Shown here one piece after another: positions 4,641 through 28,754 of a DNA stretch of 28,754 bases. The stretch is from a virus: the IMG/VR virus record IMGVR_UViG_3300045971_000506, positions 1 to 28,754 of that record; one strand, 5' to 3'. The notes beneath the pieces are model-generated. The model had not been told where the DNA came from. It saw only the letters and a list, made by a program, of their open reading frames with translations, and did no database searches. The number at the start of each line of letters is the position of its first letter. Positions within the stretch are counted from its first letter, which is position 1. The translations under genes were made by a program, and so were the position numbers.

Positions 4641-6239
4641 ATGCGCTCCACCGCCGCCGAACGCAAGAAGTCCTCGATCGTTGCCGAACGGGAGATCATG
4701 CGCTTTGCGGTGGCTGATCCTGAGACCGGCATTAAGCCGCACGCCCTGTGGCACAAGCATGTGCACAACGTGGAGCTGGACCCGATGCAGGTGCTCAAGA
4801 TGCACGAGATGGACCTGCACCCCAACACCGTGGACAACAGTTCGCGTCGCACGGGCAAGACGGCGGTGAAGGAAATGCACAACCTGGAGGTGCTGGCCAC
4901 CACGCCGCACCAGGACTGTGGCATTGTGGCGCCGCGGATGCAGCAGAGCCAGAACAACCTGAATTACATGATCGATGCGATCAAGCGCAGCGCCATGTTG
5001 AAGGCCTTCATCAATTACTCGAGCGGGCGCATGCATCTGCGCGACACAGGGTTTGAGTTTGTGAACCACAGCCGGGCGGCGGCCTTCGGCATCATGAGCC
5101 AGATAGATGGTGAGTCCCTGACCATTGGCGACCTTGAGGAAATTGACGACATGCCGCAAGAGCGGCTGATGAGCCGCTTCCTACCCATGCTGGGCGCCGC
5201 GCGACGCCTGGGTGTGGATCCGCGCAGCAGCTCGTTCAAGCCGTCCGTCCGCATTTCTGGCGTTTTCAAGGGCGCCGGCGTGCTGCAGCGGCTCATCGAT
5301 ACCGGGGAATACCACGTCCTGCCGGTTGTCAATGTGCACCTGGGCGTGAAGATGGGCATGGTGAATGTCGAGTGGGCCAAGTCCATGGCGGTGCAGATGA
5401 GCCAGGAGGAATACATCCGCCAGTTGCTGTGTATCAACATCAAGGCGCGCAACTGGATCTGGGAGGAGCACATCCGCCATGCCTGTGCCCTGGGCCTCGA
5501 GGCAGGACTGCAGCGAGCTGAGCCACTGCCTGGCCAGCGCTACAAGCGCCGCGGCCTGATCGGTCTGGGGTATGACCACACCGGACATGGTGAGACCCCG
5601 GAGGCATCAAAAAGCGCTCTGGTGATCGTGGAAGTGATGGGCAACTGGCTGACCTTCCCCTTTGTGAAGCTGTGGGAGCCCGGCGTCAGCGATTCGACAC
5701 TGCGCCAGGACATCGTGGCGATCTGGGACTACTTTCGCCCGGACTACGCGATCGGTGATGCATACGGTGTCGGGATGATGACCGCGGTCAATGACGATCT
5801 GTTCCGCAAGGGCCTGACCGAGGTGAACCGCGAGACGGTGAACGACGGCCAGAGCAACGCTACGAGCTGGGGCATGTGGGCGTTTGCCCCAATGCGCTTT
5901 GAGGGGATGACAAAGCACGTGATGGCCAGCGCCGTGCGTGAGGCCTTCCATAACAGCCGCGCTGCCTTTCCGTACGTCGATACAGGATGGGACCAGGAGG
6001 ACAAGACATGGACCACTTTCATGCGCCAACTTGGGAATATGAAGGCGCTGCCTACGCAGGCGAGCTACAGCAGTTTTCAGATGGTGGACACCAAGATCGG
6101 AGACGACTTGTTTGATGCGGTATGCGCCGGCGTGTACGCCTTGCTGACCCGAGGGCTGGCGGATGCGCCTGCGGTGATCCAGCAGCGCAAGGCGAGCCGG
6201 GCGAGCTTGTTGGGCATGGACGGGATGGTGATGCAATGA
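4641..6239 (+). CDS. terL: Terminase large subunit
   Basis: 532 residues, normal length for the packaging ATPase-nuclease that pumps DNA into the prohead and cuts it. Walker A is at residues 67-75 (SSRRTGKTA, Lys73). A hydrophobic-acidic stretch at 160-167 (LTIGDLEE) is the likely Walker B/catalytic glutamate. The C-terminal RNase H-like nuclease is marked by Asp312 (GLGYDHTG), Asp373 (YAIGDAYG) and Asp488-Asp489/Asp492 (GDDLFDAV). It is the third gene of the packaging block, and its TGA overlaps the ATG of the next gene. The start ATG 4641 lies 3 bp after the RyR gene. Confidence 0.9.
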   Translation: MRSTAAERKKSSIVAEREIMRFAVADPETGIKPHALWHKHVHNVELDPMQVLKMHEMDLHPNTVDNSSRRTGKTAVKEMHNLEVLATTPHQDCGIVAPRMQQSQNNLNYMIDAIKRSAMLKAFINYSSGRMHLRDTGFEFVNHSRAAAFGIMSQIDGESLTIGDLEEIDDMPQERLMSRFLPMLGAARRLGVDPRSSSFKPSVRISGVFKGAGVLQRLIDTGEYHVLPVVNVHLGVKMGMVNVEWAKSMAVQMSQEEYIRQLLCINIKARNWIWEEHIRHACALGLEAGLQRAEPLPGQRYKRRGLIGLGYDHTGHGETPEASKSALVIVEVMGNWLTFPFVKLWEPGVSDSTLRQDIVAIWDYFRPDYAIGDAYGVGMMTAVNDDLFRKGLTEVNRETVNDGQSNATSWGMWAFAPMRFEGMTKHVMASAVREAFHNSRAAFPYVDTGWDQEDKTWTTFMRQLGNMKALPTQASYSSFQMVDTKIGDDLFDAVCAGVYALLTRGLADAPAVIQQRKASRASLLGMDGMVMQ

Positions 6240-6592
6240 ACCCAGGCTTTTACAACATAACGGCCAAGCAGGGCGCCACCTGGCGGCTGCGTTTGAACTG
6301 GCGCGACGGTACCGGCGCGCAGGTGAATCTGGCCGGATCGCGGGCGCGCCTGGTGGTGCGGGCCAAGCCCGGTAGCGGCGTGGCGGTGCTGGACCTGGAC
6401 AGCCAGGGGGTGAGTCCGGCGATTGTGCTGGGCGCGAGCGACTACAACATCGTCGCCACGGTGAACAAGGTGACGATGGGCGCGATCAAGCCGTTTGGCT
6501 ACGTGTGGGACCTGGAAATAACCGATAGCCTGGGCGACGACTGGCCTCTGCTGACGGGGCGCTTTGACCTGGTGGGGAGCACGGTGCGATGA
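6236..6592 (+). CDS. Beta-sandwich virion protein, BppU-N-like
   Basis: 118 residues starting at ATG 6236, which overlaps the terminase stop (ATGA). The pattern GATWRLRLNWRDGTGAQVNLAGSRARLVV, then regularly spaced strands, Y-x-WDLEITDSLGD and a final LL-x-G-x-F is typical of small beta-sandwich domains found at the base of phage fibres, such as the BppU N-terminal type. It probably anchors the fibre encoded two genes downstream to the particle. Its position between terminase and portal does not tell whether that is a head or tail location. No enzymatic motifs. Confidence 0.62.
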   Translation: MNPGFYNITAKQGATWRLRLNWRDGTGAQVNLAGSRARLVVRAKPGSGVAVLDLDSQGVSPAIVLGASDYNIVATVNKVTMGAIKPFGYVWDLEITDSLGDDWPLLTGRFDLVGSTVR

Positions 6593-6987
6593 CCAATACC
6601 GTGGTGGCCATTGCCGAAGATGTGGTGCACACCGTGCAAGTGGCGGTGGAGGCGGACACGCTGGTGGAGGTGCTGCAGGACACGCTGGTGTCCGTGGTGG
6701 TGCAGGAGAGCGTGCAGGTGGTGACCGCCACACAGCAAGGGCCTGCAGGACCGCCTGGAGGTGGCGGTGGCGGTACCGCTGAGTTTGTGCAGCCGCATTT
6801 TGTGTATGCCAATGGCGTGCTGCAGCGGGTGGAGTATGCCGATGGGCGGTGGAAGGCGTTTGAGTTTTCGCCGGCCCTGGTGTTGATGTGGGTGGATATT
6901 TTTGATGGCACCCGGGTGCAGCGGCGAACGCTGGTGCGGGATGTGCAGGGGCGGTTGGTGGATGTTGTGCAGAGTGAGGTGAGCTGA
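6589..6987 (+). CDS. Small fibre/linker protein with a short collagen-like hinge
   Basis: 132 residues in three parts: a Val-rich N-terminal half (repeated VxVxVE-type strands, residues 1-48), a hinge QGPAGPPGGGGGG (about 50-62) resembling the collagen-like GPxGPP linkers of phage fibres, and a C-terminal domain (FVYANGVLQRVEYADGRWKAF...) with a repeated VxYADGR-like hairpin. Both ends overlap neighbours by 4 or 1 nt, so translation is coupled. A trimeric fibre shaft or connector is likely. The two-residue GPP core is too short to be confident of a true triple helix. Confidence 0.6.
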   Translation: MTNTVVAIAEDVVHTVQVAVEADTLVEVLQDTLVSVVVQESVQVVTATQQGPAGPPGGGGGGTAEFVQPHFVYANGVLQRVEYADGRWKAFEFSPALVLMWVDIFDGTRVQRRTLVRDVQGRLVDVVQSEVS

Positions 6988-9320
6988 TGGCGGTTTTGAT
7001 CACCGGCACCGGCACCGGCCCCTTCAATATTGCGGGCTCTGGGGTAACCGACCCCGTAACGTCAGCAGCGATCTACGCTTACGTCATTGCGCAAAACGCG
7101 GCGAATGCGAGTCGCATTGGTACGACAATTTTCAGCTACTCGTGGGCTTGCAAATTTACCTTAACGTCTTGCCTCTGGAACCCCGTTCAGGAAGCGCACA
7201 TTTTTGCGCAGACCCCAACAATCGGGGCAAGCGCGGAATTCCGAAATGGTTCGCTAGTCTCTGGAGTAGCCAAAAACGGCGGCATGATTCAAATGCCAAC
7301 GACTGGCGGCCTACTCACCGGAGGCGGAAAATTTGCAAGCTACGGCGGGGTAGTGGCGGCACCTCTCTCGTCGCCAGGCGCGTCGAACGGTCCCGTCGTG
7401 TTGCGCGACACGGTTTGCCAGTTCGCCGACTCCATCACAAACAGTGGCACTAATGATTATTTTCGCGTGACCATCGGCAGTTCGGGCGCTGTGGGATTCA
7501 AGGTCACGGTTATCCCGATCCGGTTTCAAGACGTTAAATTTGCCGGTTGCACCATCGCTTTTCAACACAACACAACATCGCCATTCACGCCTGTCGATAC
7601 GATTCTCGAACAAGTTACTTACGACATCGTTGACAACCTAACAGTTAATACGCTCACGCTGCAAGGGCTTTACTCAGATTTCGGCGTACCAAAAAACACA
7701 TTGGTGATCACCGGGGAGCGTGCCGGAGGTATCAAGATTATCCAGTGGCGCTACAACCTTGCAGTGAGCAGCGCATCGGGCCTGCTCAGCGGCGCAGCCG
7801 TGACTATCTGTGACGTGCTCGGCGTCGTCACCTATTCGGGTGCTACGGCGTCAGGCGTCATTCCACAGCAAACGCTTGAGAGAGTTCGTTACACAGGGCT
7901 AGTTAACCGCGCTTATCTCACGCCATGGGCTGGCACCATCACCAATAAATATCCGCACACGGTTCGTGTTCGAAAATTCGGCTTTTTGCCGGTCGAAATC
8001 GTCAAGCAGGCTGATCAGCACAGCGCCGACGGCGTGATTTTGGCGGCTGACACCGGTGCTACGGGAACAGAAGCAGCGGCGGCGATGATCACGGGTGTGT
8101 CGATTGATCCGGTCACTCAGACTGTGACAGTGAGCGAGGTGCGGCCGGTGCCAGAGATTTACAACGCCATTGCTTATTTTCTGGCTTTGGCGGCAAATCA
8201 TGGGGTTCCCTGGTTTGCTTTGTGCAGCGGTAGCACCGTACGCACGGACGCGTGGAGTTGGGTGCTTACTGTACCCGTGACTGGCACAGTCGCAAGCAGT
8301 GCGGGCGTGATCGCTGCGCTGGCGGCCTGCGTGTCTGCAGTCGTGTTGACTGGCACGGCAAGATGGGACACGCAAGCGCCATGCGTCGCCCAGGGCGGAA
8401 GCGCGGCCAGCGGCACAACTGTACGCGTAACGGCAGCAACAAGCGGGGCCGTGTCGGACTTCAGCGCCTTTGAGTTCGACGCGGGCAGCATTTTTGAAAA
8501 TAACAGCGGACAGTCGATCACACTCCAGCTCACGCCGGGTCAGACGGTGCCAACGCTGCTTGCCACCGCCGGAACGATCATTGTGGACGCCAGCATTGAT
8601 GCCGTTATCACAGCACCCCACTTGCTACCCGGTACCACGGTGCGCCTGTACGACAAGACCAACAATGTCCTACTCGACGAGTCCGTTACAACAGTCACGG
8701 GCTACAGCTTTGCCAAGGGCTGGACGGCTAATGCCCTTCTTGAGTTGCGGCATGCAAAGCTCGGTTACATGCCGCGCGTGAGCCTTGGCGCATTTACCAG
8801 TGCGGGCGCGACTTTCTTGGATGTGCAATCTGCCAATGCTGTGTACGACGCTAACGGCATTGATGGCGCCACGCTGGCTGCCGCCGAGTTTGCGACTGAC
8901 TTTGTGCAAGTGCAGATTGACATTGCAGACAGCGATAAGGCCACTACGTTTCAGCGTCTTTACGCGTGGTATTGCTATGTCGAAACGACTTTCTCGGGGT
9001 TGCAGTATTTTGCTGGGGGCCTGAGCGCCGTTGACACGGTCAACTACATGGTGAACGTCAATGTGGTTGACCTCAAGCTCGACAATGTGCTGCGCACGCC
9101 TACGCTTCTAACGGGCGGCAGCATGACCCGATCGGACGGCACTAGCATCATTGCAGACACGAGTGGCAGCATTCAGATTGACCCTGCCAAGGCTTATGTG
9201 GCAAACAGCAGCGGGCTTATGGTCGCTATCGTGGCCAAGCCTAGTTTGGCCCAGATCGAGGGAAGCGCTGTGTTGGCCAAGGAATCCACGGTGCAAACCG
9301 TTTTGGGCCTGAGCGTGTAG
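6987..9320 (+). CDS. Large fibre / putative receptor-binding protein
   Basis: 777 residues, rich in Ser, Thr, Ala, Gly and Val and almost without charged helices, as in beta-helical or beta-prism fibre shafts. There are two recognisable zones. Residues ~500-700 contain GTTVRLYDKTNN and an IDIADSDKATTFQRLYAWYCY block followed by YFAGGLSAVDTVNYMVNVNVVDLKLDN. The C-terminus (IDPAKAYVANSSG...VLAKESTVQTVL) is of a type seen at the ends of Burkholderiales phage surface proteins. ATG 6987 shares a base with the preceding TGA. Stretches such as 7080-7700 are visibly more AT-rich than flanking genes, which suggests exchange between phages. The function as adsorption fibre is inferred from size, composition and context. 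Confidence 0.6.
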   Translation: MAVLITGTGTGPFNIAGSGVTDPVTSAAIYAYVIAQNAANASRIGTTIFSYSWACKFTLTSCLWNPVQEAHIFAQTPTIGASAEFRNGSLVSGVAKNGGMIQMPTTGGLLTGGGKFASYGGVVAAPLSSPGASNGPVVLRDTVCQFADSITNSGTNDYFRVTIGSSGAVGFKVTVIPIRFQDVKFAGCTIAFQHNTTSPFTPVDTILEQVTYDIVDNLTVNTLTLQGLYSDFGVPKNTLVITGERAGGIKIIQWRYNLAVSSASGLLSGAAVTICDVLGVVTYSGATASGVIPQQTLERVRYTGLVNRAYLTPWAGTITNKYPHTVRVRKFGFLPVEIVKQADQHSADGVILAADTGATGTEAAAAMITGVSIDPVTQTVTVSEVRPVPEIYNAIAYFLALAANHGVPWFALCSGSTVRTDAWSWVLTVPVTGTVASSAGVIAALAACVSAVVLTGTARWDTQAPCVAQGGSAASGTTVRVTAATSGAVSDFSAFEFDAGSIFENNSGQSITLQLTPGQTVPTLLATAGTIIVDASIDAVITAPHLLPGTTVRLYDKTNNVLLDESVTTVTGYSFAKGWTANALLELRHAKLGYMPRVSLGAFTSAGATFLDVQSANAVYDANGIDGATLAAAEFATDFVQVQIDIADSDKATTFQRLYAWYCYVETTFSGLQYFAGGLSAVDTVNYMVNVNVVDLKLDNVLRTPTLLTGGSMTRSDGTSIIADTSGSIQIDPAKAYVANSSGLMVAIVAKPSLAQIEGSAVLAKESTVQTVLGLSV

Positions 9321-9343
9321 CCCCCCATTTTGAAATCAAGCAC

Positions 9344-10753
9344 ATGAACTATTTGAAGACTCTGGCAAGCGCCACCACCTCCAACGTGGCTGCCATGTGG
9401 AAAGAACTATTTCCAAGCGCTTCACGGCTGACCAATGAACGCGGCCGACGAATCGATAGCAACCTGGGAATGCAGCGGGCGATGAAGAGCGCCATGTTTG
9501 TGGACTACGACCGGCGTGCGTTGGTTGCCATGATGCGCGAGATGGACTTGAAGGATGGGCGGGTCAAACAGGTGCACGGACGCACGGCAAGTGACGTGAT
9601 CCGCGGCGGCCTGGTGCTGCAGACCAACAGCCGGGTGCTGGCCGACGAGTGGGAGCGCTTTGAGCACCGGCTGCAGCTCAACAATGCCGAAAAACTCAAG
9701 AGCGACGCCCGTGGCCTGGTGATGGAGGGTAGTCTACCGCTGCAGCTTGTTTTAGACGACGCGTCTAATATCGCCGCCGGTGTGCGAATGCCCAGCGACA
9801 CCATTGTGCCCATGGTCGACGTGAGTGGACGCTTTAAGGACCCTGCGGCCGCTTTTGAGCAGCGCGATGTGCTTACCGGCGGCATACAGGCGAGCTTTGC
9901 CGCCTGGCAGCTGGGCATGGGCCGTCTGGATCCGGACAACTGGGACGACCTGGGCAGCATGGGCCGCCCGATGCTGGACGGCTGCGCGGCGGTGTGGCGC
10001 AAGCTGGTGATGACCGAAGAGGATCTGGTGATCCGCCGCCGGGTGCGCGCACCGCTGCGCCTGGCCCATATCCTGGAGGGCGCAGACGATGCTGCGCTGG
10101 CCGCGTATCGCCAGAGCACCGAGGGCGAGAAGGGGGAAATCACCACGGACTTCTATCTGAACCGCAAGGGCGGTGTGCAGTCCATACAGGGCGACGCAAC
10201 GCTAGGCGATATCGGCGACGTGGCACACCTACTGTCCACCTTCTTTGCTGGCAGCCCGGCACCAAAGGCCATGTTTGGCTACACCGACAACACCGCGCGC
10301 GACATCCTTGAAGACATGAAGCGCACCTACTACGACACGGTGGACGGCCTGCAGGACGCGCAGGGCGGTGTGTATGCCTTTGCCTTTCGCATCCATTTGC
10401 TGTTTCAGGGTATCAACCCGGGTCCGAATGAGTTTTATCTGCGCTTCGCCAAGCGGCGCACCGAGACCGCTAACCAGGTGGCGGACCTTGCGCTCAAGTG
10501 GATGTCGCTGGGCCTGCCGGACGAGTTCATTCACTCGGAGATGGGTCTGGACCCGAAGGACATTCGCGCGATGAAGATCGAGCAAGCCCAGAGCAATGAC
10601 CCGTATCCCAACCCGCTGAAGATTGGCCAGAGCAGCGGCGCACCAGCTCCCGGCGGCAACACCATCAGCGTGACGCCCGGAAATGCCCCCAAGGGGGAAA
10701 GTGCCACCAGCATCAGGCAGCCAGGGGGCAACGGCGGGCGAGGGCGCAAATAG
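9344..10753 (+). CDS. Portal protein
   Basis: 469 residues, consistent with the dodecameric portal that forms the DNA channel at one capsid vertex. Family-like features: an N-terminal region with RRIDSNLGMQRAMKSAMFVDYDRRALV and RVKQVHGRTASDVIRGGL, a central MTEEDLVIRRRVRAPLRLAHIL wing, an AFGYTDNTARDILEDMKRTY-type helix (MFGYTDN, about residues 307-325), and a Gly/Pro-rich disordered tail. It sits 23 bp after the fibre gene and directly before the 80-residue and MuF genes, the standard portal-MuF order. Confidence 0.82.
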   Translation: MNYLKTLASATTSNVAAMWKELFPSASRLTNERGRRIDSNLGMQRAMKSAMFVDYDRRALVAMMREMDLKDGRVKQVHGRTASDVIRGGLVLQTNSRVLADEWERFEHRLQLNNAEKLKSDARGLVMEGSLPLQLVLDDASNIAAGVRMPSDTIVPMVDVSGRFKDPAAAFEQRDVLTGGIQASFAAWQLGMGRLDPDNWDDLGSMGRPMLDGCAAVWRKLVMTEEDLVIRRRVRAPLRLAHILEGADDAALAAYRQSTEGEKGEITTDFYLNRKGGVQSIQGDATLGDIGDVAHLLSTFFAGSPAPKAMFGYTDNTARDILEDMKRTYYDTVDGLQDAQGGVYAFAFRIHLLFQGINPGPNEFYLRFAKRRTETANQVADLALKWMSLGLPDEFIHSEMGLDPKDIRAMKIEQAQSNDPYPNPLKIGQSSGAPAPGGNTISVTPGNAPKGESATSIRQPGGNGGRGRK

Positions 10754-10996
10754 ATGCGCTACACCCAACACCTATCCAATAACCACGTGCTGGGCGCACC
10801 TGCAGGTTGGAATCAGCAAGATCTGCCTTGCGGCGCGCTGCCCGTGACCTGCACCGAGGTGGAAGGCAAGCCAGCCATGGTGTCGTTCTGGAAGCCGGAT
10901 GCGGACGAGCTCGAAGCGTTGCGTAACGGCGGCGCGGTGGCCTTGTGGATTTACGGCTCGGTGCACCCGGTTGTAGCCATGGGGGTAGAGCCTTGA
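10754..10996 (+). CDS. Conserved small phage protein of unknown role
   Basis: 80 residues starting on the base after the portal stop codon and overlapping the MuF start by 4 nt. The sequence reads MRYTQHLSNNHVLGAPAGW, CGALPV, then PAMVSFWKPDADELEALRNGGAVALWIYG, with a compact alpha/beta look and an ELEAL helix. I associate similar small proteins with the portal-MuF junction in other phages from memory, but none with known function. No signal peptide or membrane helix. Confidence 0.62.
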   Translation: MRYTQHLSNNHVLGAPAGWNQQDLPCGALPVTCTEVEGKPAMVSFWKPDADELEALRNGGAVALWIYGSVHPVVAMGVEP

Positions 10997-12471
10997 AAAG
11001 CGCCCAAACACGTGCCGCTATCAAGCGGGCCAGCCAGCAGGCCCGCAACGCCATGCGGGAGCTCGATGCTGCCGTGCTGGAGCAACTGCTGGCCCTGTAT
11101 ACCGATGCCGCTGACGAAGTGCGCGCCACGATCCTGCACCTGGTGGATGGCAGCGACACGGTACCGGTTGCCAACCTGCGGGGCCTATTGCGGCAGATTG
11201 ACGACGTGGTGGATGCGTTGGCCCTCAAGCGCAACGAGCTGCTGGTGCAAAGCGTGGACCAGGCTGCCGCGTTGGGCGTGCGGCCTTACACCCTGCCGGG
11301 CGTGAGTGCCACCGGTGTCGCTGGCCAGGCCGTGCTGGAAAGTGGCGCTGCCATGAAGATCCACCAGGAAGCCGTGCGCTTTGTACAGAGCTTTTCCGCC
11401 GCCGATGGCCTGACGCTGAGCAATCGCCTGTGGCGGCTAAACCAAGGCGCCAAGGAAGTGCTGAGCCGATCCATTGGCCAAGCCGTGGTGGCAGGCTGGG
11501 ACGCCAGCAAAGCCGCCGCCCAGTTCATGTACAGCGGGCAGACCGTGCCGCTGGATGTGCAGGCCCGCCTGGGTGCAGCCAAGGCTGATGCCCTGTTGCA
11601 CAGTGCTGACCTTCTGACCGACAGCGCGGGCGAGGTGTGGAAGGCCGAGCGCGTGTTTCGAACTGAAATCAACCGTGCGCATGGCACCGCGTACATGACC
11701 AGTGCGGAAAGGACGCCAGGGTTTGCGGGCTTCAAGTTCCTGCTGAGCCCACAGCACCCCAAACACGACATTTGCGACCTGCTCTCCACCCAGAACCTCT
11801 ATGGGCTAGGGGAGGGCGTCTACCCTGATGCGCGGACCTGCCCGTGGCCGGCCCATCCCAATACGCTCAGTTTTGTGAACATCGTGTTTGCGGAAGAGGT
11901 GACTGCAGCCGACCGGGCCGGAAAGGAAACCGTGACCGAAGCAATGGCACGGTTGAGCCCGGAGGAGCGCACCGGGGTTCTCGGTGTGGAGAAATCTGCC
12001 CTCTATGACGCCGGCAAGGTCAAACCATGGATGATCCGCAGCCCTTTGCGGGCCGTGCGGGAGCGCATGGCGCGGCAGGGCGCTGCGGTAGCATCGGCGC
12101 CAATGCAAATCCATCCTGATGCGATCCCCAATGCCGGGAGCGCCACCGTCCGCGCTGAAAAGCTGGTTCAATACGCGCTCAATTCAAACAGCGAAAGTGG
12201 CCGTCACAAGGCCCTGGTGTTTGAGTCGGTGCTGGGGTACAACCAAAGCAACTTTGAGGAACTGCGGCAGCAATTGTCGCAAGGCGTCCCCACTGTGGCC
12301 GCTGTCAAGAGTTTGCAAGATGTCTATGGTCAGCGCTACACTGCACTGATACCGGTCACTGGGCCAAAGGGTACCGCCGTAGTGACAACGGGATGGATAC
12401 TCAGGCCAGGCAGCGATACCCCGGATTTGATCACCGCCTACATTCCCACGAGAAGGAACAAAAATGTTTGA
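10993..12471 (+). CDS. MuF-type minor head protein with C-terminal DUF6883 (putative toxin) domain
   Basis: 492 residues from TTG 10993, preceded by GGTAGAG and overlapping the previous stop as TTGA; no better in-frame ATG precedes the conserved part. Residues ~1-300 are a MuF/SPP1 gp7-like head morphogenesis protein: a helical region, then VWKAERVFRTEINRAHGTAYM (from residue ~215) and HPKHDICDLL...CPWPAHPN, the Cys/His end of MuF. A linker follows to ~370. Residues ~374-489 match DUF6883 (KLVQYALN, GRHKALVFESVLGY, YGQRYTALI, GTAVVTTGWIL, LITAY). MuF proteins with variable C-terminal domains are an established class of phage polymorphic toxins carried in virions. The toxin role of DUF6883 here is inferred from architecture and the adjacent DUF4926 gene. 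Confidence 0.75.
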   Translation: MKSAQTRAAIKRASQQARNAMRELDAAVLEQLLALYTDAADEVRATILHLVDGSDTVPVANLRGLLRQIDDVVDALALKRNELLVQSVDQAAALGVRPYTLPGVSATGVAGQAVLESGAAMKIHQEAVRFVQSFSAADGLTLSNRLWRLNQGAKEVLSRSIGQAVVAGWDASKAAAQFMYSGQTVPLDVQARLGAAKADALLHSADLLTDSAGEVWKAERVFRTEINRAHGTAYMTSAERTPGFAGFKFLLSPQHPKHDICDLLSTQNLYGLGEGVYPDARTCPWPAHPNTLSFVNIVFAEEVTAADRAGKETVTEAMARLSPEERTGVLGVEKSALYDAGKVKPWMIRSPLRAVRERMARQGAAVASAPMQIHPDAIPNAGSATVRAEKLVQYALNSNSESGRHKALVFESVLGYNQSNFEELRQQLSQGVPTVAAVKSLQDVYGQRYTALIPVTGPKGTAVVTTGWILRPGSDTPDLITAYIPTRRNKNV

Positions 12472-12676
12472 AATGTTCCAAACCATCTGGACCACAGTGC
12501 CTGTGCCGGCATTGGGCTTGGGCGCGGGTGCCAAAGGCGTGATCGTTGACGTCTACCACGAGCCCTATCCCGGATACGAGATCGAGTTCATTGACGCTGA
12601 GAGTGAGCCCATTGGCCTGCTGTCGATGCAGCCCAATGAGATATCCAGCACCTTGCCGGCCCGTCTGGCAGCCTAG
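12464..12676 (+). CDS. DUF4926 family protein, putative immunity partner of the MuF-DUF6883 protein
   Basis: 70 residues, overlapping the MuF gene end by 8 nt. The core matches DUF4926: L-GAGAKGVIVDVYHEPYPGYEIEFIDAESEPIGLLSMQPNEI, i.e. an SH3/KOW-like small barrel with hGxVV-x-Y...YEVEF-DA. From memory, DUF4926 genes are often found immediately beside DUF6883 genes in bacteria, including outside phages, which argues for a functional pair. In MuF toxin loci the gene just downstream of the toxin commonly encodes immunity, protecting the lysogen while virions are assembled. Binding has not been shown and the direction (antitoxin versus accessory) is inference. Confidence 0.72.
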   Translation: MFEMFQTIWTTVPVPALGLGAGAKGVIVDVYHEPYPGYEIEFIDAESEPIGLLSMQPNEISSTLPARLAA

Positions 12677-12697: not shown

Positions 12698-12709
12698 TAA
12701 ATATTGGCC

Positions 12710-13060
12710 ATGAGCTACTTTGACGCCGCGCTTGACATCCAGAAAGAGAAGTTCACCCCCTTTAAGGCCCTGATCGTCCTGGACGACAAGGTGCTGCGCA
12801 AGTACGTGATGTGCTGGGGCCCGGAGCTGGTGCGCCGGCTCAACGATTACCCGAGGGATACCACCATGGCCGACCTGTGGGACTGCGTGCGGGTGGACTT
12901 CCAGGCACTGGCAGATCTGACCGGCGACAGCATGCCCCAGGTGATGGCGCGCTTTCGCCAAGCGCAGGGCCTACAGCTGATCTACCCCGATGGCAATGTG
13001 GCCGATGCCGTGACGCGCGTGCTGCGCAAAAAGATGGTTGAGCAGTCTGAGGGCGAGTGA
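12710..13060 (+). CDS. Hypothetical phage protein
   Basis: 116 residues from ATG 12710 (MSYFDAALDIQKEKFTPF); an upstream in-frame TTG at 12704 is less likely. Mixed alpha/beta composition with a helical C-terminal half (LADLTGDSMPQVMARFRQAQGL, VADAVTRVLRKKM) that could be a helix-turn-helix-like segment, though no family is recognised. No strong ribosome-binding site is visible. It is the last rightward gene before the immI-like module and converges with the Mnt-like gene across a 17-bp gap containing a CCGC/GCGG hairpin. Confidence 0.55.
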   Translation: MSYFDAALDIQKEKFTPFKALIVLDDKVLRKYVMCWGPELVRRLNDYPRDTTMADLWDCVRVDFQALADLTGDSMPQVMARFRQAQGLQLIYPDGNVADAVTRVLRKKMVEQSEGE

Positions 13061-13077: not shown

Positions 13078-13461
13078 CTAACTGCTCTTGACTGACTTGC
13101 GCTCCATGATGATGGATGCTTCTGGTGGGATCATGGTTCTGCTGGCTTCCAGCATCTCCCTGAACTGGGCGATGGTGGTCTGCGGGGTGATGGTGGCATG
13201 GAACAACGTGCCACCGTTGGCCATCGCGGTGCGAGCCATGCGCACGTGCGCCTCTTCGAATGTGCCGCCGCGCATCTCCATTTCATGATCAACGGCCTCT
13301 ATCACGTCGAAGGGCAGCGCCTTGCTGTCTTCGAATGACGCCTTCAGGCGCGCGACTATCTCGGCCGTAAGGGTCCTAGTGTTTGCGGCTGCGGCAGTCA
13401 GAAGCTGCTCCTTCAATTCACTTGGGAGACGCAGGTTGGTTTGGATATCGAATTTCGCCAT
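13078..13461 (-). CDS. Mnt-like ribbon-helix-helix repressor
   Basis: 127 residues. Residues ~5-45 (IQTNLRLPSELKEQLLTAAAANTRTLTAEIVARL) form an Arc/Mnt ribbon-helix-helix: the DNA-contacting strand QTNLRL and two helices with the conserved N-x-R-x-L-x-x-EI turn. The remaining ~80 residues have no recognised family and may drive oligomerisation or ligand sensing. It is transcribed leftward, divergently from the Arc-like gene, across a ~90-bp control region, exactly as mnt is from arc-ant in phage P22. Expected role: repress the antirepressor promoter in the lysogen. It shares about a dozen aligned residues with the divergent Arc-like protein, so the two may be related by duplication. Confidence 0.78.
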   Translation of the reverse strand: MAKFDIQTNLRLPSELKEQLLTAAAANTRTLTAEIVARLKASFEDSKALPFDVIEAVDHEMEMRGGTFEEAHVRMARTAMANGGTLFHATITPQTTIAQFREMLEASRTMIPPEASIIMERKSVKSS

Positions 13462-13486
13462 TGCCCGAGGATACCAATCAAAGTGC

Positions 13487-13515
13487 TTGCAATCTAGGTA
13501 TCACAAAGCTATGAT
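13487..13515 (+). promoter_or_regulatory. Sigma-70 promoter for the arc-ant operon
   Basis: TTGCAA (13487-13492) and TATGAT (13510-13515) are spaced by exactly 17 nt. This gives a strong rightward promoter with a start near 13522 and a ~30-nt leader to the Arc-like ATG. The -10 box lies inside the palindrome described as operator. Confidence 0.68.
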
Positions 13516-13529
13516 AGCTATGTGCTATG
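13507..13529 (+). promoter_or_regulatory. Candidate operator for ribbon-helix-helix repressors
   Basis: The 13-bp palindrome AGCTAT-g-ATAGCT (13507-13519) covers the -10 box. GCTATG occurs three times here (13508, 13517 and 13524). Ribbon-helix-helix repressors bind short inverted or tandem boxes, so occupancy would block the arc-ant promoter. In P22, Arc and Mnt act on the equivalent region. Confidence 0.55.
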
Positions 13530-13550
13530 TCGCACGACCAGGAGAAACAG

Positions 13551-13721
13551 ATGGCAAGAAGTGATACGCAGACGAACCTGCGATTAAAAAAGGAAATGAA
13601 AGATTGGCTGAGGCAGCAGGCGGAGGCTAATAAACGAAGCCTGACCAGCGAGATTGGTGTGATTCTTGAGGATTACCAGCGCCGGCAAACACAGCAACGG
13701 GAGACGGCCCATGCGACCTAA
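13551..13721 (+). CDS. Arc-like ribbon-helix-helix repressor
   Basis: 56 residues, close to P22 Arc (53). ATG 13551 is preferred over 13527 because CAGGAG lies 6 nt before it. The sequence has a DNA-binding strand TQTNLRL, helix A (KKEMKDWLRQQAEAN), turn KRSLTSEI and helix B (GVILEDYQRR), the full Arc fold. The stop overlaps the antirepressor start by 11 nt, so the two are translationally coupled. By analogy with P22 it shuts off its own operon after early antirepressor synthesis. Confidence 0.78.
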   Translation: MARSDTQTNLRLKKEMKDWLRQQAEANKRSLTSEIGVILEDYQRRQTQQRETAHAT

Positions 13722-14427
13722 ACCCACAAAAGGAAACGCCCCGGCTGTTTGCGCAGCCTGGGCGTCAAGTGCCCAGAACCAATCCTCTAAAGAAAGAACT
13801 AAGCCTGTGAATTCTAAAGCAGGCACCCAAAAAAGTGAACCCGTTGCCCTGGCGGGGCAGCTCATCCCCGTGCTCTTTGGCCCAGACACCCTAATTTTGG
13901 TTGAGCATAATGCTCAGCCCTATGTGGTCATGAAGCCCTTGGTGACGGCAATGGGCCTCGATTGGCGCAGCCAGCACGTCAAACTTGGTGAGAAATTCGG
14001 GGCAGTTATGGTGGAAATCACCACAACTGGTGCAGACGGAAAGCAGTACGCCATGGGCTGCCTGCCACTGCGCAAACTCCCAGGCTGGCTCTATTCCATC
14101 AACCCCGGCAAGCTGAGCGCCGAATTGCGGCCCAAGGTTGTGCGCTACCAGGACGAGTGTGACGAAGTGCTGTGGCGCCACTGGACCCAACAGGAGCCGC
14201 TGCACGGCGGCAAGCGCCTGAACCACAGCGACAGCGACCGTCTGCTGCGCCGCCGTGGCGACTTGCGCAAGGAGCTGGGCAACACCGCCAGTCTTGGCGT
14301 GGCCACCGATGCTTTTGCAGATTACGTGATGGTCAGCTCGTTGCTCGGACAGCGCGCATCGACCTTGCGCGAACTGGCCCCCGGAATCCGTCAGCAACTG
14401 TTGGAGCTGGAAGGCGGTGCTTCATGA
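13711..14427 (+). CDS. Antirepressor, P22 Ant-like
   Basis: 238 residues from ATG 13711 (GGGAG 7 nt upstream). After a ~45-residue basic, Ser/Lys-rich leader comes a P22_AR_N domain (about residues 48-155): IPVLFGPDTLILVEHNAQPYVVMKPLVTAMGLDWRSQHVKL, then LPLRKLPGWLYSINP, then YQDECDEVLWRHW. This is the signature of phage antirepressors, which in P22 bind and inactivate the C2 repressor. The C-terminal ~80 residues are helical. Ant proteins of incoming phages can induce resident prophages. The repressor it targets is not in the window. It sits with Arc-like and Mnt-like genes as in the P22 immI region, but within the head operon. Confidence 0.82.
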   Translation: MRPKPTKGNAPAVCAAWASSAQNQSSKERTKPVNSKAGTQKSEPVALAGQLIPVLFGPDTLILVEHNAQPYVVMKPLVTAMGLDWRSQHVKLGEKFGAVMVEITTTGADGKQYAMGCLPLRKLPGWLYSINPGKLSAELRPKVVRYQDECDEVLWRHWTQQEPLHGGKRLNHSDSDRLLRRRGDLRKELGNTASLGVATDAFADYVMVSSLLGQRASTLRELAPGIRQQLLELEGGAS

Positions 14428-25080: not shown

Positions 25081-25475
25081 TGTGGGCCGTTCAGTACATC
25101 GGAACGCCGTGGGCAGCTGGTGCACAGGGGCCAGAAGCTTTTGATTGCATGGCTTTCTTTCGCCATGTTCAGGGAAAGCACTTTGGTATTGAGGTGCCCA
25201 GCATCATCGCGCCGGACTACGACGACGCGCAGGTGTTGACCAATCTGTTCGCCAAGCACCAGGAGCGGGACAACTGGATACACATTGAGCAGCCCGAGCA
25301 TGGTTGTGCCGTGATCATCCATAGGCCCCTGCATATCGGCGTGTGGCTGGATGTGGACGGCGGCGGCGTGCTGCATTGCGTGCGCGGTGCCGGTGTGGTT
25401 TTCACGTGCGGCAGCGTATGGCAGTTCTCTGGGTTCGGGCGGCGTGAGTACTTCCGGCATGGGACCAAGGCATGA
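25080..25475 (+). CDS. NlpC/P60-like tail-tip peptidase
   Basis: 131 residues. GTPWAAGAQGPEAFDC gives nucleophile Cys23 in the family context Gly-x-Pro...Phe-Asp-Cys; HIGVW supplies His85, and LHC (His99) is a plausible third position. In phage tails this domain (lambda gpK C-terminal type) is thought to cut peptidoglycan during DNA entry. Lambda K also carries an Mpr/JAMM domain, which is absent here: this protein is the NlpC half only. It starts at ATG 25080 sharing a base with the DUF1833 stop. Confidence 0.75.
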   Translation: MWAVQYIGTPWAAGAQGPEAFDCMAFFRHVQGKHFGIEVPSIIAPDYDDAQVLTNLFAKHQERDNWIHIEQPEHGCAVIIHRPLHIGVWLDVDGGGVLHCVRGAGVVFTCGSVWQFSGFGRREYFRHGTKA

Positions 25476-28400
25476 GCATTTCCGTCCTATACCTTGAAAG
25501 CGCACTGAGCCCACAAAAGCGCGTGGTGCAGGCAATGGAGCCTGCCTCCATTCAGAGCCTGGCACCCGTTGGCTGGGCGCATCCGTTCGTCGCATTCGTG
25601 GATGGCAAGCCTGTGCTGCGCGCCGACTGGGAGCTGGTCATTGAAGATGGCCATGCGCTGGCGTTCGTGGACGTCAATTCCATCCCGCAGGGCGGCGGTG
25701 GCGGCGGATCGGACGCGCTGCGCACCGTCTCCATGATTGCGCTGATGGTGGCCGCACCTGAAATCGGTGCCTTCATGGGGCCTGGCATGTTTGGCGCAGG
25801 TGTCATGGGGATGAGTGCTGCCGCGTGGACTGGCGCCACCATGTTCGCGGGCATGGCCCTGGTCAATGCGATCCTGCCGCCACCCAAGCTGCCATCCAGT
25901 CAGCAGGCTGCAGCCTTGGCCGCGCCGAGCCCGACATACACGCTAGGTGCCCAGGGCAATTCGGCCAGGCTGGAAGCGGCTATTCCGGAGCACTTCGGCC
26001 GGCTGCCGGCCTATCCCGACTTTGCGGCGCAGCCCTATTCGGAGTTTTCCGGAAACGATCAGTATCTGTACCAGCTGCTGTGCCTCGGCCGTGGGCAGTT
26101 CGACATCGAAGCGATCCGCATCGACAAGTCCCCACTTTCGAGCTACTCCGACATCACCTATGAGGTGATCCAGCCATACGGCACGCTCAATCTGTTCCCA
26201 GCCTCGGTCGTGACAAGCATCGAGGCGACCGGGCAGGACATGTCGGATGCCGCATCCATCGGTCCTTTCATTGCCAGCGCCACGGGCACCACGGCCAACT
26301 TCATTGGCATCGACTATGTGATGCAGAAGGGCCTGTACTACGGCAATGACGATGGCTCGCTTGCAGCCAAGTCGGTGACGGTGGTGGCCGAGGCGCAATT
26401 GGTGAATGCCGTGGGCGTAGCCATTGGTTCTTGGTTCACTCTGGGCACTGAGACCATCACGGCCGCAACCAATACGCCGCAGCGCGCCAGTTTCAAATAT
26501 GCCGTGACGGCCGGGCGCTACCAGGTGCGGGTGCACCGTTCGGACACCAAGGACACCAGCACCCGCGCTGGCCATGATGTGGCCTGGGCTGGCCTGCGCG
26601 CCTATCTGACCGACACCCGGACCTTTGGCGACGTGACGTTGATCGCCATGCGGATGAAGGCGACCAACAACCTGAGCGGCCAGGCTAGCCGCAAGGTCAA
26701 TGTCATTTGCACGCGGATGCTCCCGATCTGGACCGGCACCGGCTGGACTGGCAACACCGCTACCAGGTCAATTTCCTGGGCCATGGCCTACGCATGCAAG
26801 AAGGCTGGCCTGACCGACGCGCAGATCGACCTCGCTGGCCTGCTCACGCTGGATGCCACCTGGACAAGCCGGGGCGACTACTTCGACGCCCGGTTTGACA
26901 ATTTCCTGAGCTGGTGGGAGGCCGCTACCAAAATTGCCCAGGCTGGACGCGCCAAGCCATTCATGCAGGGCGGTGTGATGCGGGTCATGCGCGACCAGGC
27001 GGCCACCATTCCGGTGACGATGTTCTCGGTGCGCAATATCACACCGGGCTCTTTCAGCATCGACTACCTGATGCCGACGGCCGAGACGGCGGACTCGGTA
27101 CGGGCGTCCTACCTGGACAACACGGCCTGGGCACCGGCAAGCGTGACTGCATCCTTACCAGGCAGCACGGCAAGCAATCCCGCCAAGGTGGACCTGTTTG
27201 GTGTCACAGACCGTGACCACGCCTACCGTGACGGCCTCTATTTCGCTGCCTGCAACCGGTATCGCCGCAAAAACATCGCGTTCACCACCGAGATGGAGGG
27301 TTTCATTCCCTCATACGGTGATCTGATCGCGATCCAGCACGACATGCCGGCCTGGGGCCAAGGCGGCGAGGTGACGGCCTGGGTTTCCGGCACCCGCACC
27401 CTGACACTGACCGAGCAGCTCACCTGGGGCACGGGCACGCACTACATTGTGCTGCGCAAGCGCGACGGCTCCACCGAGACGCCCATTGTGGTGACCGCTG
27501 GTGCAGCACCCAACCAGGTGGTGCTGGCCACTGCACCTTCGTTCACGCCCTACACCGGTATGAGCGAGGAGCGCACGCACTACAGCTTCGGCTGGCAGTC
27601 CACCTACCAGCAGATGGCCAAAGTGGTGAAGGCTTCTCCTTCCAGCCTGAACTCTGTTGCCATCGAATGCGTGAATGAGGACTCCAACGTTCACACGGCC
27701 GACATGGGTGTGACCACTCCGGTGCGACAGACCAGCCAACTGGCGGGCTACACAAACGCGCCCGTTGTGTCTGGCGTCAAGGTCACACAGGCGCTGTATG
27801 CACCTGACAAGCTGATCGTTTCCTGGCAGCCCGCCGCTTGGGCGGACAGCTACACCATCCAGCAAAGCAGCAATGGAACAGACTGGACCACCGTGGCCAC
27901 GGCCGTTACCGGCAGCAGCGCGATCGTCACGGCGCTCTATGGTGCCAACACGAAGACCCGCGTTGCGGCCGTAGGCCTGTCAACCGGCCCTTGGTCAGGT
28001 GCCAGTTCCATGCCGATGGACCTGACGCCGGCACCGGTTGCGCCTGTGGCCATCGCCGTGGGTGGCATGTTCTCTGTGCATGTGTCCTGGAGCTTTGGCG
28101 ATGCGATCAAGTCGCGCAGCTGCACCGAGATATGGTGGAGTGGAACCAACGATCGGGCGGTTGCTGGAAGACTGACATCTGAACCGTTTCCTGGCCAGGA
28201 ATTCGACCACATTGGCCTCACGGCTGGCCAGAGTGGCTTTTACTGGTTGCGTGTGCTGGACACCAGTGGGACCTATTCGCCCTGGTACCCCACCAGCGCC
28301 ACCGCAGGCCTCTACGCCGTCGCCAGCTCCGACCCCTCAGCCCTGCTCACCCAGCTCAACAAGTCTATTGGCGTTGACCAGCTCACCGCTGGCATGGCAA

Positions 28401-28754
28401 CCAAGATCGAATTGATCGACTTGAGCGCACTTAAGAGTGCCGTGGATAGTGCGATTTCTGGTACCAAGATATCCTCCGAGGCGTTCACCAGGGCCAACGC
28501 TCTGTTGGACGAGGCATCAGCCCGGGGTGCGGCAATCACGAATGAGCAAACGATCCGTCAGGCTGCAGACGAGTCGATGGCCAGCAGCATTTCAACGCTG
28601 ACAGCAGGCTTGAATACTGCTAGCGCTGCAATCCAAAGCGAAGCCACAACCAGGGCCACAGCAGATGCAGCCGAGGCCATGGCACGCACTACGCTGGCGA
28701 CGCGGGTGGGTACAGCCGAGAGCGCAATCCAAAGCGAAGCCACAACCAGGGCGA
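25472..28754 (+). CDS. Host-specificity / tip attachment protein J-like (3' partial)
   Basis: ATG 25472 overlaps the NlpC stop as ATGA; the frame stays open to the right edge (1,094 codons). N-terminus: small domain to ~75, then a Gly/Ala/Met-rich hydrophobic segment (about 85-140, MIALMVAAPEIGAFMGPG) like the lambda gpI/TipJ region. A beta-rich body runs from ~150 to 750. Two fibronectin type III-like domains lie at about 765-850 and 855-945 (KLIVSWQPAAWADSYTIQQSS; SVHVSWSF). A Ser/Ala/Thr helical repeat region starts near 960. J-type proteins form the tail tip and bind the host receptor with their C-terminus, which is missing here. Confidence 0.82.
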   Translation, partial: MSISVLYLESALSPQKRVVQAMEPASIQSLAPVGWAHPFVAFVDGKPVLRADWELVIEDGHALAFVDVNSIPQGGGGGGSDALRTVSMIALMVAAPEIGAFMGPGMFGAGVMGMSAAAWTGATMFAGMALVNAILPPPKLPSSQQAAALAAPSPTYTLGAQGNSARLEAAIPEHFGRLPAYPDFAAQPYSEFSGNDQYLYQLLCLGRGQFDIEAIRIDKSPLSSYSDITYEVIQPYGTLNLFPASVVTSIEATGQDMSDAASIGPFIASATGTTANFIGIDYVMQKGLYYGNDDGSLAAKSVTVVAEAQLVNAVGVAIGSWFTLGTETITAATNTPQRASFKYAVTAGRYQVRVHRSDTKDTSTRAGHDVAWAGLRAYLTDTRTFGDVTLIAMRMKATNNLSGQASRKVNVICTRMLPIWTGTGWTGNTATRSISWAMAYACKKAGLTDAQIDLAGLLTLDATWTSRGDYFDARFDNFLSWWEAATKIAQAGRAKPFMQGGVMRVMRDQAATIPVTMFSVRNITPGSFSIDYLMPTAETADSVRASYLDNTAWAPASVTASLPGSTASNPAKVDLFGVTDRDHAYRDGLYFAACNRYRRKNIAFTTEMEGFIPSYGDLIAIQHDMPAWGQGGEVTAWVSGTRTLTLTEQLTWGTGTHYIVLRKRDGSTETPIVVTAGAAPNQVVLATAPSFTPYTGMSEERTHYSFGWQSTYQQMAKVVKASPSSLNSVAIECVNEDSNVHTADMGVTTPVRQTSQLAGYTNAPVVSGVKVTQALYAPDKLIVSWQPAAWADSYTIQQSSNGTDWTTVATAVTGSSAIVTALYGANTKTRVAAVGLSTGPWSGASSMPMDLTPAPVAPVAIAVGGMFSVHVSWSFGDAIKSRSCTEIWWSGTNDRAVAGRLTSEPFPGQEFDHIGLTAGQSGFYWLRVLDTSGTYSPWYPTSATAGLYAVASSDPSALLTQLNKSIGVDQLTAGMATKIELIDLSALKSAVDSAISGTKISSEAFTRANALLDEASARGAAITNEQTIRQAADESMASSISTLTAGLNTASAAIQSEATTRATADAAEAMARTTLATRVGTAESAIQSEATTRA
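28628..28754 (+). repeat. 96-bp-period tandem repeat in the J-like gene
   Basis: A 29-bp sequence at 28628-28656 (GCAATCCAAAGCGAAGCCAC...) recurs identically at 28724-28752, encoding IQSEATTRA both times. The period of 96 bp keeps frame (32 residues), and the window ends within the second unit, so copy number is unknown. Typical of an alpha-helical coiled stalk. Confidence 0.7.

What the first reader, a model, noticed from the sequence alone, without database searches (positions are those of the whole stretch)
10993..12676. MuF protein with DUF6883 C-terminus plus DUF4926 partner: candidate virion-borne toxin-immunity pair
Seen: a MuF-like core (~300 residues) followed by a separate C-terminal domain (~374-489) resembling DUF6883, then an 8-nt-overlapping gene resembling DUF4926. 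Known: MuF proteins carry diverse C-terminal toxin domains in temperate phages, with an adjacent immunity gene. From memory, DUF6883 and DUF4926 genes are neighbours in many bacterial genomes outside phages. Inference: DUF6883 is a toxin delivered with the particle and DUF4926 protects the lysogen. The function of both families is unknown to me, so this may be an undescribed pair.
Basis: partly seen in the sequence, partly recalled or inferred. Interest (0 to 1): 0.82.

Follow-up and report, generated by a model that had tools for sequence, protein, structure and literature searches.

The report
Phage-head toxin domain with immunity gene
A phage head protein ends in what looks like an RNA-cutting toxin domain, followed at once by a small gene that probably protects the host, and the same pair turns up in several other kinds of bacterial weapon.

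Summary
Window 10993-12471 encodes a 492-residue MuF-type head protein whose last ~117 residues are Pfam DUF6883; an 8-nt-overlapping gene (12464-12676) encodes DUF4926. Comparative evidence makes DUF6883 a polymorphic-toxin domain: it ends MuF head proteins, CdiA/FHA exoproteins, an LXG, a PT-VENN and a PrsW protein, and occurs alone. In genome samples 39 of 42 DUF6883 places have a DUF4926-like neighbour (36 of 39 without the three centre genomes). A confident AlphaFold2 model (pLDDT 91) has the BECR RNase fold, closest to the CDI tRNase CdiA-CT Kp342 (Z 11.0), then EC3006; invariant Lys and Tyr and a near-invariant Thr/Ser fall on EC3006 active-site residues, by range offsets. DUF4926 is an SH3/KOW-like barrel. 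Best explanation: a head-borne BECR RNase toxin with its immunity protein. Caveats: this copy has Ser where 77 of 93 relatives have a conserved His; the toxin-immunity interface was not predicted with confidence (pTM 0.63); toxicity, RNA target, packaging and injection are untested. No paper in the searched library describes the pair. It is a new toxin-immunity family of a known kind.

The parts
10993..12117 (+). MuF-like head-morphogenesis core plus linker (residues 1-375) of the toxin carrier
   Evidence: phrog_1657 residues 6-298, E 6.3e-29; 247 of 375 and 245 of 374 residues identical to L002 and L003
12118..12471 (+). DUF6883 C-terminal domain (residues 376-492 and stop): predicted BECR-fold RNase toxin. 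Conserved polar residues K390, Y394, K406, T466, W468, T481; S400 stands where most relatives have His
   Evidence: PF21814 E 4.4e-23; model pLDDT 91.3; VIA-align Z 11.0 to 6cp9_G; residue counts
12464..12676 (+). DUF4926 gene, 70 aa: predicted SH3/KOW-like barrel immunity protein, start overlapping the toxin stop by 8 nt
   Evidence: PF16277 E 2.2e-9; fold taken from the homologous half of the L017 chain, NusG match Z 8.8; the window's own DUF4926 was not folded
9344..10753 (+). portal-like protein directly upstream (packaging-module context)
   Evidence: phrog_19480 head morphogenesis E 5.2e-7, phrog_104 portal E 2.1e-5
10754..10996 (+). 80-aa gene of unknown function between portal and MuF genes, conserved in L014 (= L002 contig) and L003
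   Evidence: phrog_34105 E 7.9e-9, no function; 75-76% identity

Best explanation
The 492-aa protein is a MuF-type polymorphic toxin. Its N-terminal part is a head/portal-associated phage protein; its C-terminal DUF6883 domain is a metal-independent RNase of the BECR fold, most like the CDI tRNases CdiA-CT Kp342 and EC3006. A few copies would sit in the virion head and enter the next host with the DNA, where the domain cleaves RNA, most likely tRNA near the acceptor stem, slowing or killing cells that lack the partner. The overlapping DUF4926 gene makes a small SH3/KOW-like protein that binds and blocks the toxin in the producing cell or lysogen. Shown here: family membership, architecture, gene linkage, predicted folds, conserved residues, purifying selection. 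Inferred: RNase activity, tRNA target, neutralisation, packaging and injection. My odds: toxin-immunity pair 0.87; RNase 0.75; tRNase 0.45; delivered by the virion 0.6.
For: Of 31 DUF6883 carriers that I picked and scanned, 13 are phage head/MuF proteins, 7 carry secretion or CDI-type domains (TPS/FHA x4, PT-VENN, LXG, PrsW), 2 are other phage proteins and 9 show no other domain; in 30 of 31 DUF6883 ends within 20 residues of the C-terminus, L010 being the exception. DUF4926-like neighbour: 78 of 80 distinct domains in the loci held (71 downstream, 7 upstream) and 39 of 42 places in genome samples (59, 87). Pfam's own model matches 67 of 76 of the small genes. Model pLDDT 91.3, pTM 0.83, three helices then four strands. 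Best solved matches: 6cp9_G Z 11.0, rmsd 2.2, 100 residues, 18% identity; 6vek 8.8; 6cp8 8.4; 6cp9_G Z 11.1 again with a second member, L017, 51% identical to the window's domain. K15 and Y19 (95 of 95 each) and T/S106 (84 of 88) are conserved in 99 distinct sequences, and in the 35 found only with the Pfam model: 32 of 32, 32 of 32, 27 of 28. By range offsets they fall on EC3006 K204, Y208, T330, and K15 and T106 on Kp342 K157 and T255, listed as active-site residues in PMC9086364 (passages). Window, L002 and L003 all keep the partner; dN/dS of the domain between L002 and L003 is 0.09.
Against: This copy has Ser400 where 77 of 93 members have His, and Asp478 where 57 of 88 have Arg. The offsets do not put that His on Kp342 H170 (it would be domain residue 28) and put Y19 one residue off Y160, so its catalytic role is a guess. 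The joined toxin-immunity chain had pTM 0.63: mutual placement is not confident. The A4 profile finds no CDI toxin sequence in the PDB at E<=10, so the link to Kp342/EC3006 rests on fold; Foldseek's own best E is only 7.1e-3, and matches below the first three (Z 6.6 and less) lie in the range the tool calls common. 2 of 80 and 3 of 42 lack the partner; 12 of 40 DUF4926 places have no DUF6883 beside them. No activity or delivery was tested.
Confidence: 0.76

Rival explanations
1. This phage lineage carries a catalytically dead or changed BECR domain that now only binds RNA or serves head assembly, with DUF4926 as a structural partner, as Iyer et al. propose for the C-terminal domain of Mu gp30.
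For: Ser400 and Asp478 replace the usual His and Arg in window, L002 and L003; 7 of 16 head-borne copies lack the His against 9 of 77 others with a residue there (related phages counted separately). Passage on the inactive Mu domain in PMC5512222.
Against: K, Y, K, T, W and T of the site are intact; the partner gene is kept in all three phages, with dN/dS 0.10-0.21 between them; Arg is E, Q or A in many other members, among them the LXG-borne copy; BECR RNases without a catalytic His exist (RelE, recalled; Table 1 of Zhang et al., passage, lists Arg residues for RelE).
Confidence: 0.15
2. The pair is an intracellular toxin-antitoxin or superinfection-exclusion module that rides on a head gene; the toxin acts inside the producing cell (for example on competing phages) rather than being injected.
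For: Stand-alone bicistrons on plasmids (L005, L007, L011, L012, L013); 7 places in sampled genomes with an antitoxin-first order, though there the DUF4926-like stretch scores only 18-30 bits.
Against: Repeated fusion to MuF and to secretion domains speaks for export or delivery; a head gene would be expressed only late in the lytic cycle (general knowledge).
Confidence: 0.15
3. DUF6883 is a DNA- or protein-binding domain without toxicity and DUF4926 its co-factor; linkage reflects an operon, not immunity.
For: No activity data; no confident interface.
Against: Delivery-system diversity, C-terminal position, RNase fold with conserved polar site; partial or broken DUF6883 genes beside a DUF4926 gene.
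Confidence: 0.06

Closest known systems
CdiA-CT of Klebsiella pneumoniae 342 (6CP9) and of E. coli 3006 (6CP8/6VEK), BECR tRNases of CDI systems (Table 1 passages of PMC9086364)
   Same: Same fold over 100 of 116 modelled residues (Z 11.0; 8.4-8.8 for EC3006); Lys and Thr (both) and Tyr (EC3006) at equivalent positions by range offset; C-terminal toxin cassette with an immunity gene
   Different: No detectable sequence relation at E<=10; immunity proteins differ (Kp342 mostly beta, EC3006 all-alpha, per PMC9086364; here SH3/KOW-like); carrier here is a phage head protein; conserved His absent in this copy
MuF polymorphic toxins of temperate phages (Jamet et al. 2017, PMC5576092, passages)
   Same: MuF-like core in the packaging module, variable C-terminal toxin domain shared with other toxin families, small ORF directly downstream
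   Different: Toxin domain and immunity family not named in the passages read (12 of 30 places); a likely betaproteobacterial host, whereas that survey found known MuF toxin domains mostly in Firmicutes and extensions without known domains in Proteobacteria
PBECR domains fused to MuF and portal proteins (Iyer et al. 2017, PMC5512222, passages)
   Same: BECR fold at the C-terminus of MuF; Ser/Thr in strand 4
   Different: No match to a Pfam PBECR model at E<=1; L051 carries PBECR3 and DUF6883 side by side as separate domains
NusG/Spt5 KOW and Tudor-type SH3-like barrels (fold of DUF4926)
   Same: Z 8.8 to NusG 2xhc, rmsd 2.0 over 56 residues, for the L017 partner
   Different: A common small fold; it shows no shared function, and the Hpy99I restriction enzyme (3fc3, Z 9.8) scores higher still

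Membership tests
Pfam DUF6883 (PF21814) | match above gathering score | tested here: met
   82.1 bits against 27
Pfam DUF4926 (PF16277) | match above gathering score | tested here: met
   37 bits against 29.1
MuF polymorphic toxin | N-terminal MuF-type head protein | tested here: met
   phrog_1657 E 6.3e-29; Pfam PF04233 not matched at E<=1 in the window, but above its cut-off in relatives L056, L057, L072, L074, L008, L091, L093, L094
MuF polymorphic toxin | gene in the packaging module | tested here: met
   portal-like gene 9344-10753 and weak terminase match 4641-6239 upstream, Mu-I-like head protease downstream
MuF polymorphic toxin | C-terminal domain shared with other toxin families | tested here: met
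   LXG, PT-VENN, TPS/FHA, PrsW carriers
MuF polymorphic toxin | small ORF (<150 aa) directly downstream | tested here: met
   12464-12676, 70 aa
MuF polymorphic toxin | temperate phage | tested here: inconclusive
   P22_AR antirepressor and two Arc-like genes at 13078-14427 suggest it; the record ends inside an open gene (25472-28753) and I made no search for an integrase
MuF polymorphic toxin | C-terminal domain toxic to bacteria and carried in virions | not testable with these tools
   needs expression and virion proteomics
BECR-fold RNase | N-terminal helices followed by a four-stranded meander | tested here: met
   H13-20, H29-38, H46-59, then four strands, pLDDT 91.3; 6cp9_G Z 11.0
BECR-fold RNase | Ser/Thr in strand 4 | tested here: met
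   T481 (domain T106, strand 103-108)
BECR-fold RNase | His in the N-terminal helix: common, not defining (PMC5512222 passage, names a family with Arg instead) | tested here: not met
   S400 in this copy; His in 77 of 93 family members with a residue there, 24 of 30 in the Pfam-found subset; it lies in the loop after helix 1
BECR-fold RNase | RNase activity | not testable with these tools
   needs an assay
CdiA-CT Kp342/EC3006 subfamily | sequence homology | tested here: inconclusive
   no PDB CDI toxin at E<=10 with the A4 profile; fold match only
PBECR families (Pfam) | match to a PBECR model | tested here: not met
   none at E<=1

The most novel reading that the evidence does not exclude
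DUF6883-DUF4926 is one transferable tRNase cassette that moves between contact-dependent inhibition, T7SS/LXG, PrsW, phage heads and solo toxin-antitoxin loci, blocked by a KOW/NusG-like barrel. Phages have re-tuned its active site (the conserved His is missing in 7 of 16 head-borne copies) into a slower or differently aimed RNase that acts at the moment of injection, for instance to tilt infection towards lysogeny instead of killing the host.
Probability: 0.25. Interest if true: 0.75.

Novelty: new member of a known kind. Interest (0 to 1): 0.57.

Why it matters
Two widespread families of unknown function get a testable role: DUF6883 as a BECR RNase toxin, DUF4926 as its immunity protein. It gives a concrete identity to one C-terminal extension of a MuF protein in a phage of a likely betaproteobacterial host; Jamet et al. 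2017 left such proteobacterial extensions open. Because the pair is small and occurs with very different carriers, one could compare head-borne, contact-borne and stand-alone versions of the same toxin, and test directly whether MuF toxins are injected.

Tried and rejected
Sequence search of the PDB with the domain alone, with DUF4926 and with the 47-row DUF6883 profile gave only chance matches; fold comparison was needed. PADLOC and NCBIfam gave nothing for the isolated domain or the small protein; PHROGs gave one chance-level row for the domain (E 0.19) and none for the small protein. tblastn of the domain found 0 records in INPHARED phages and 10 in PLSDB plasmids at E<=0.01.

DUF4926 as the toxin and DUF6883 as the antitoxin was considered and dropped: it is DUF6883 that is fused to delivery domains, and partial or broken DUF6883 genes lie beside a DUF4926 gene (L015, L042, L045, L085, L092, L095; L096, L106, L132; judged by profile coverage, assembly errors not excluded). 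The asymmetry is not absolute: two DUF4926 matches beside full-length DUF6883 are partial (L119, L120).

A confident toxin-immunity interface was sought with a joined chain and not found (pTM 0.63); the short natural linker may itself prevent correct docking, so this neither supports nor refutes binding. The tool gives no PAE or coordinates.

Exceptions to linkage: L010 and L139 lack DUF4926 and share an extra ~120-residue C-terminal domain after DUF6883 (by eye); L032 is truncated with only about 160 nt held after it; L086 is a fragment below Pfam's cut-off; L149 has an internal TGA. DUF4926-like places without DUF6883: 12 of 40 (L107-L110, L113, L117, L118, L125, L127, L128, L131, L135), 4 of the 26 above Pfam's cut-off.

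Caveat on invariance counts: search patterns selected for some columns. K31-A32, position 25 (as [SH], or H), and 'ESALGYN' were in patterns; Y19 in one pattern; W93 and T106 only in patterns, which brought in two loci; K15 in none. The 35 sequences found only with the Pfam model are free of this and agree: K15 32 of 32, Y19 32 of 32, H25 24 of 30, T/S91 29 of 32, W93 30 of 32, T/S106 27 of 28.

Full report
Observation. The window is a virus record of 28,754 bases that ends inside an open gene. ORF 10993-12471 (492 aa) and ORF 12464-12676 (70 aa) are present as described and overlap by 8 nt. The large protein has a head-morphogenesis core (phrog_1657, residues 6-298, E 6.3e-29) and a C-terminal DUF6883 domain (residues 378-484, E 4.4e-23); the small protein is DUF4926 (E 2.2e-9, above its cut-off). 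Upstream lies a portal-like gene. Further downstream are a Mu-I-like head protease, then tail genes.

Relatives. Two IMG/VR contigs carry the same module at 66-67% protein identity, with the partner's ATG placed 8 nt back from the end of the toxin gene. A contig of the same length as L002's and with an identical DUF6883 domain is binned as Rhodoferax (L014), so a betaproteobacterial host is likely. dN/dS between L002 and L003 is 0.18 for the core, 0.09 for the toxin domain and 0.10 for the partner; synonymous sites of the toxin domain between window and the others are saturated, so no ratio is given there.

Carriers. I picked 31 DUF6883 proteins from other loci, mostly ones with long frames, and scanned them (L049 with PHROGs only). 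Thirteen are phage head/MuF proteins (L008, L031, L049, L055, L056, L057, L072, L073, L074, L089, L091, L093, L094). Seven have secretion or CDI-type parts: TPS and/or filamentous-haemagglutinin domains in L009, L021, L030, L040; PT-VENN in L024; LXG in L023; PrsW in L025. Two are other phage proteins (L051 with PBECR3, L058 with DUF5662). Nine show no second domain (L006, L010, L017, L020, both of L029, L036, L037, L046). Nothing recognised follows DUF6883 in any of the 31; only L010 has more than 20 further residues. PrsW-dependent and MuF systems are among the delivery modes listed by Zhang et al. 2012 (PMC3482391, passages). One C-terminal domain on such different carriers is the hallmark of a polymorphic toxin.

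Partner gene. Among 80 distinct DUF6883 domains in the loci held (window included), 71 have a DUF4926-like stretch downstream (-40 to +400 nt), 7 have it upstream and 2 have none (identical domains merged; one broken gene, L045, is counted as two pieces). My profile was trained on 24 such small genes (A5), so I checked with Pfam: 67 of 76 distinct small genes match PF16277 at E<=0.01. Genome samples by phylum: 42 PF21814 places in 33 of 744 genomes, of which 39 have a DUF4926-like neighbour, 32 downstream and 7 upstream; without the three centre genomes, chosen because they had a match, 36 of 39. The 7 upstream cases are short DUF6883-like frames (113-217 aa between stops), preceded by a DUF4926-like stretch of 18-30 bits, mostly within a longer open frame, so gene limits are open there. 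The reverse is looser: of 40 PF16277 places in 31 of 645 genomes, 28 lie beside DUF6883 or a remnant, and 22 of the 26 above Pfam's cut-off do. In the tool's 14 control genomes PF21814 rings in 1 (Caulobacter vibrioides) and PF16277 in 2 (that one and Thermus composti). Several DUF4926 genes sit beside partial or vestigial DUF6883, as expected if the toxin is costly and the immunity is not.

Fold and active site. With 47 homologues, AlphaFold2 gives pLDDT 91.3 and pTM 0.83 for the window's own domain: three helices, then four strands. Zhang et al. describe the BECR fold as an N-terminal helical segment followed by a four-stranded meander (PMC3482391 passage). Foldseek's best hit is 6cp8_A, E 7.1e-3. 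VIA-align ranks 6cp9_G first (Z 11.0, rmsd 2.2, 100 residues, 18% identity), then 6vek 8.8 and 6cp8 8.4; a toxin-antitoxin complex (7vd7) 6.6, BrnT 6.4 and RelE 5.6 follow, in the range the tool calls common. A second member, L017 (51% identical), gives 6cp9_G again, Z 11.1. Table 1 of PMC9086364 (passages) lists active-site residues K157, Y160, H170, R252, T255 for Kp342 and K204, Y208, H256, R260, T330 for EC3006, both acting on uncharged tRNA-Ile. From the aligned ranges, if ungapped at the ends, domain K15 corresponds to K157 and K204, Y19 to Y208, T106 to T255 and T330. Y19 falls one residue off Y160, and H170 would fall on residue 28, not on the conserved His 25. In 99 distinct sequences K15 is K in 95 of 95, Y19 Y in 95 of 95, T106 T/S in 84 of 88, W93 W in 89 of 92, T91 T/S in 84 of 93. 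In the 35 found only with the Pfam model the counts are 32 of 32, 32 of 32, 27 of 28, 30 of 32 and 29 of 32. In the 492-aa protein these are K390, Y394, T481, W468 and T466.

A result against full activity. Position 25 is His in 77 of 93 sequences (24 of 30 in the Pfam-found subset) but Ser (S400) in window, L002 and L003; 9 of 16 head-borne copies and 68 of 77 others have His (related phages count separately). Asp478 stands where 57 of 88 have Arg, but Arg is replaced in many members, the LXG-borne one included. Iyer et al. [quoted passage not shown] The window copy could therefore be altered or dead, although its partner gene is retained.

DUF4926. In the joined L017 chain (pLDDT 88.9) the partner half forms a five-stranded SH3-like barrel; solved matches include NusG (2xhc Z 8.8, rmsd 2.0, 56 residues), Spt5 KOW domains and Hpy99I (3fc3 Z 9.8). 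pTM 0.63 means the two halves are not placed confidently against each other. The window's own DUF4926 was not folded.

Mechanism. Steps shown: domain identities, linkage, predicted folds, conserved site. Inferred: the head protein carries the RNase into the next cell with the DNA (Jamet et al. hypothesise this for MuF toxins, PMC5576092 passages), it cleaves RNA, probably tRNA, and DUF4926 blocks it in producer cells. MuF toxins with (p)ppApp synthetase domains are experimentally toxic and neutralised by downstream genes (PMC12226406 passages), a working precedent.

Novelty. No paper in the library holds 'DUF6883', or PF21814, PF16277, spaced spellings of the two names or an InterPro number typed from recall; one mentions DUF4926 in passing in a cyanophage contig. 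Most subscription papers and all bioRxiv preprints are outside this library. The kind, a MuF polymorphic toxin with a BECR RNase, is known; the toxin-immunity family appears to be new.

Noticed in passing
L010:3959-4693 and L139 (reverse strand, about 1500-2200): DUF6883 followed in the same protein by a further ~120-residue domain that looks shared by both (by eye), with no DUF4926 neighbour; possibly a different immunity or effector arrangement.
   Followed up: partly
L131/L135, 305-aa frame: Three DUF4926-like stretches (15-36 bits) in one frame without DUF6883 nearby, like a pooled immunity protein.
   Followed up: no
L046:10334-11014 and L047: DUF4926 followed in the same protein by about 160 further residues in two Salmonella enterica subspecies.
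   Followed up: no
L077, L079-L084: Short DUF6883-like frames preceded by a DUF4926-like stretch: reversed, antitoxin-first order.
   Followed up: partly
L051:3778-6336: An 853-residue protein of a viral contig with PBECR3 followed by DUF6883: two RNase-type domains in one protein.
   Followed up: no
L062, around 5275-5480: A second DUF4926-like copy about 0.7 kb upstream of the DUF6883 domain with no DUF6883 of its own (orphan immunity).
   Followed up: no
window 6240-9343: About 3.1 kb between terL and portal, including a 777-aa ORF (6987-9320) with no PHROGs match; the related contig L003 has only about 70 nt there.
   Followed up: no
window 13078-14427: Cassette of an Arc-like gene on the minus strand, an Arc-like gene and a P22-type antirepressor; L003 has only about 150 nt between the same neighbours. 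Suggests a temperate, P22 immI-like regulator.
   Followed up: no
window 12704-13060: 118-aa gene next to the pair, 67-71% identical in L014 (= L002 contig) and L003, with no match in Pfam, PHROGs or NCBIfam.
   Followed up: no
L113, frame 1 about 1198-1490: PIN-like frame ending in a stretch that resembles the DUF6883 C-terminus, just before an intact DUF4926 gene: possible chimeric remnant (by eye).
   Followed up: no
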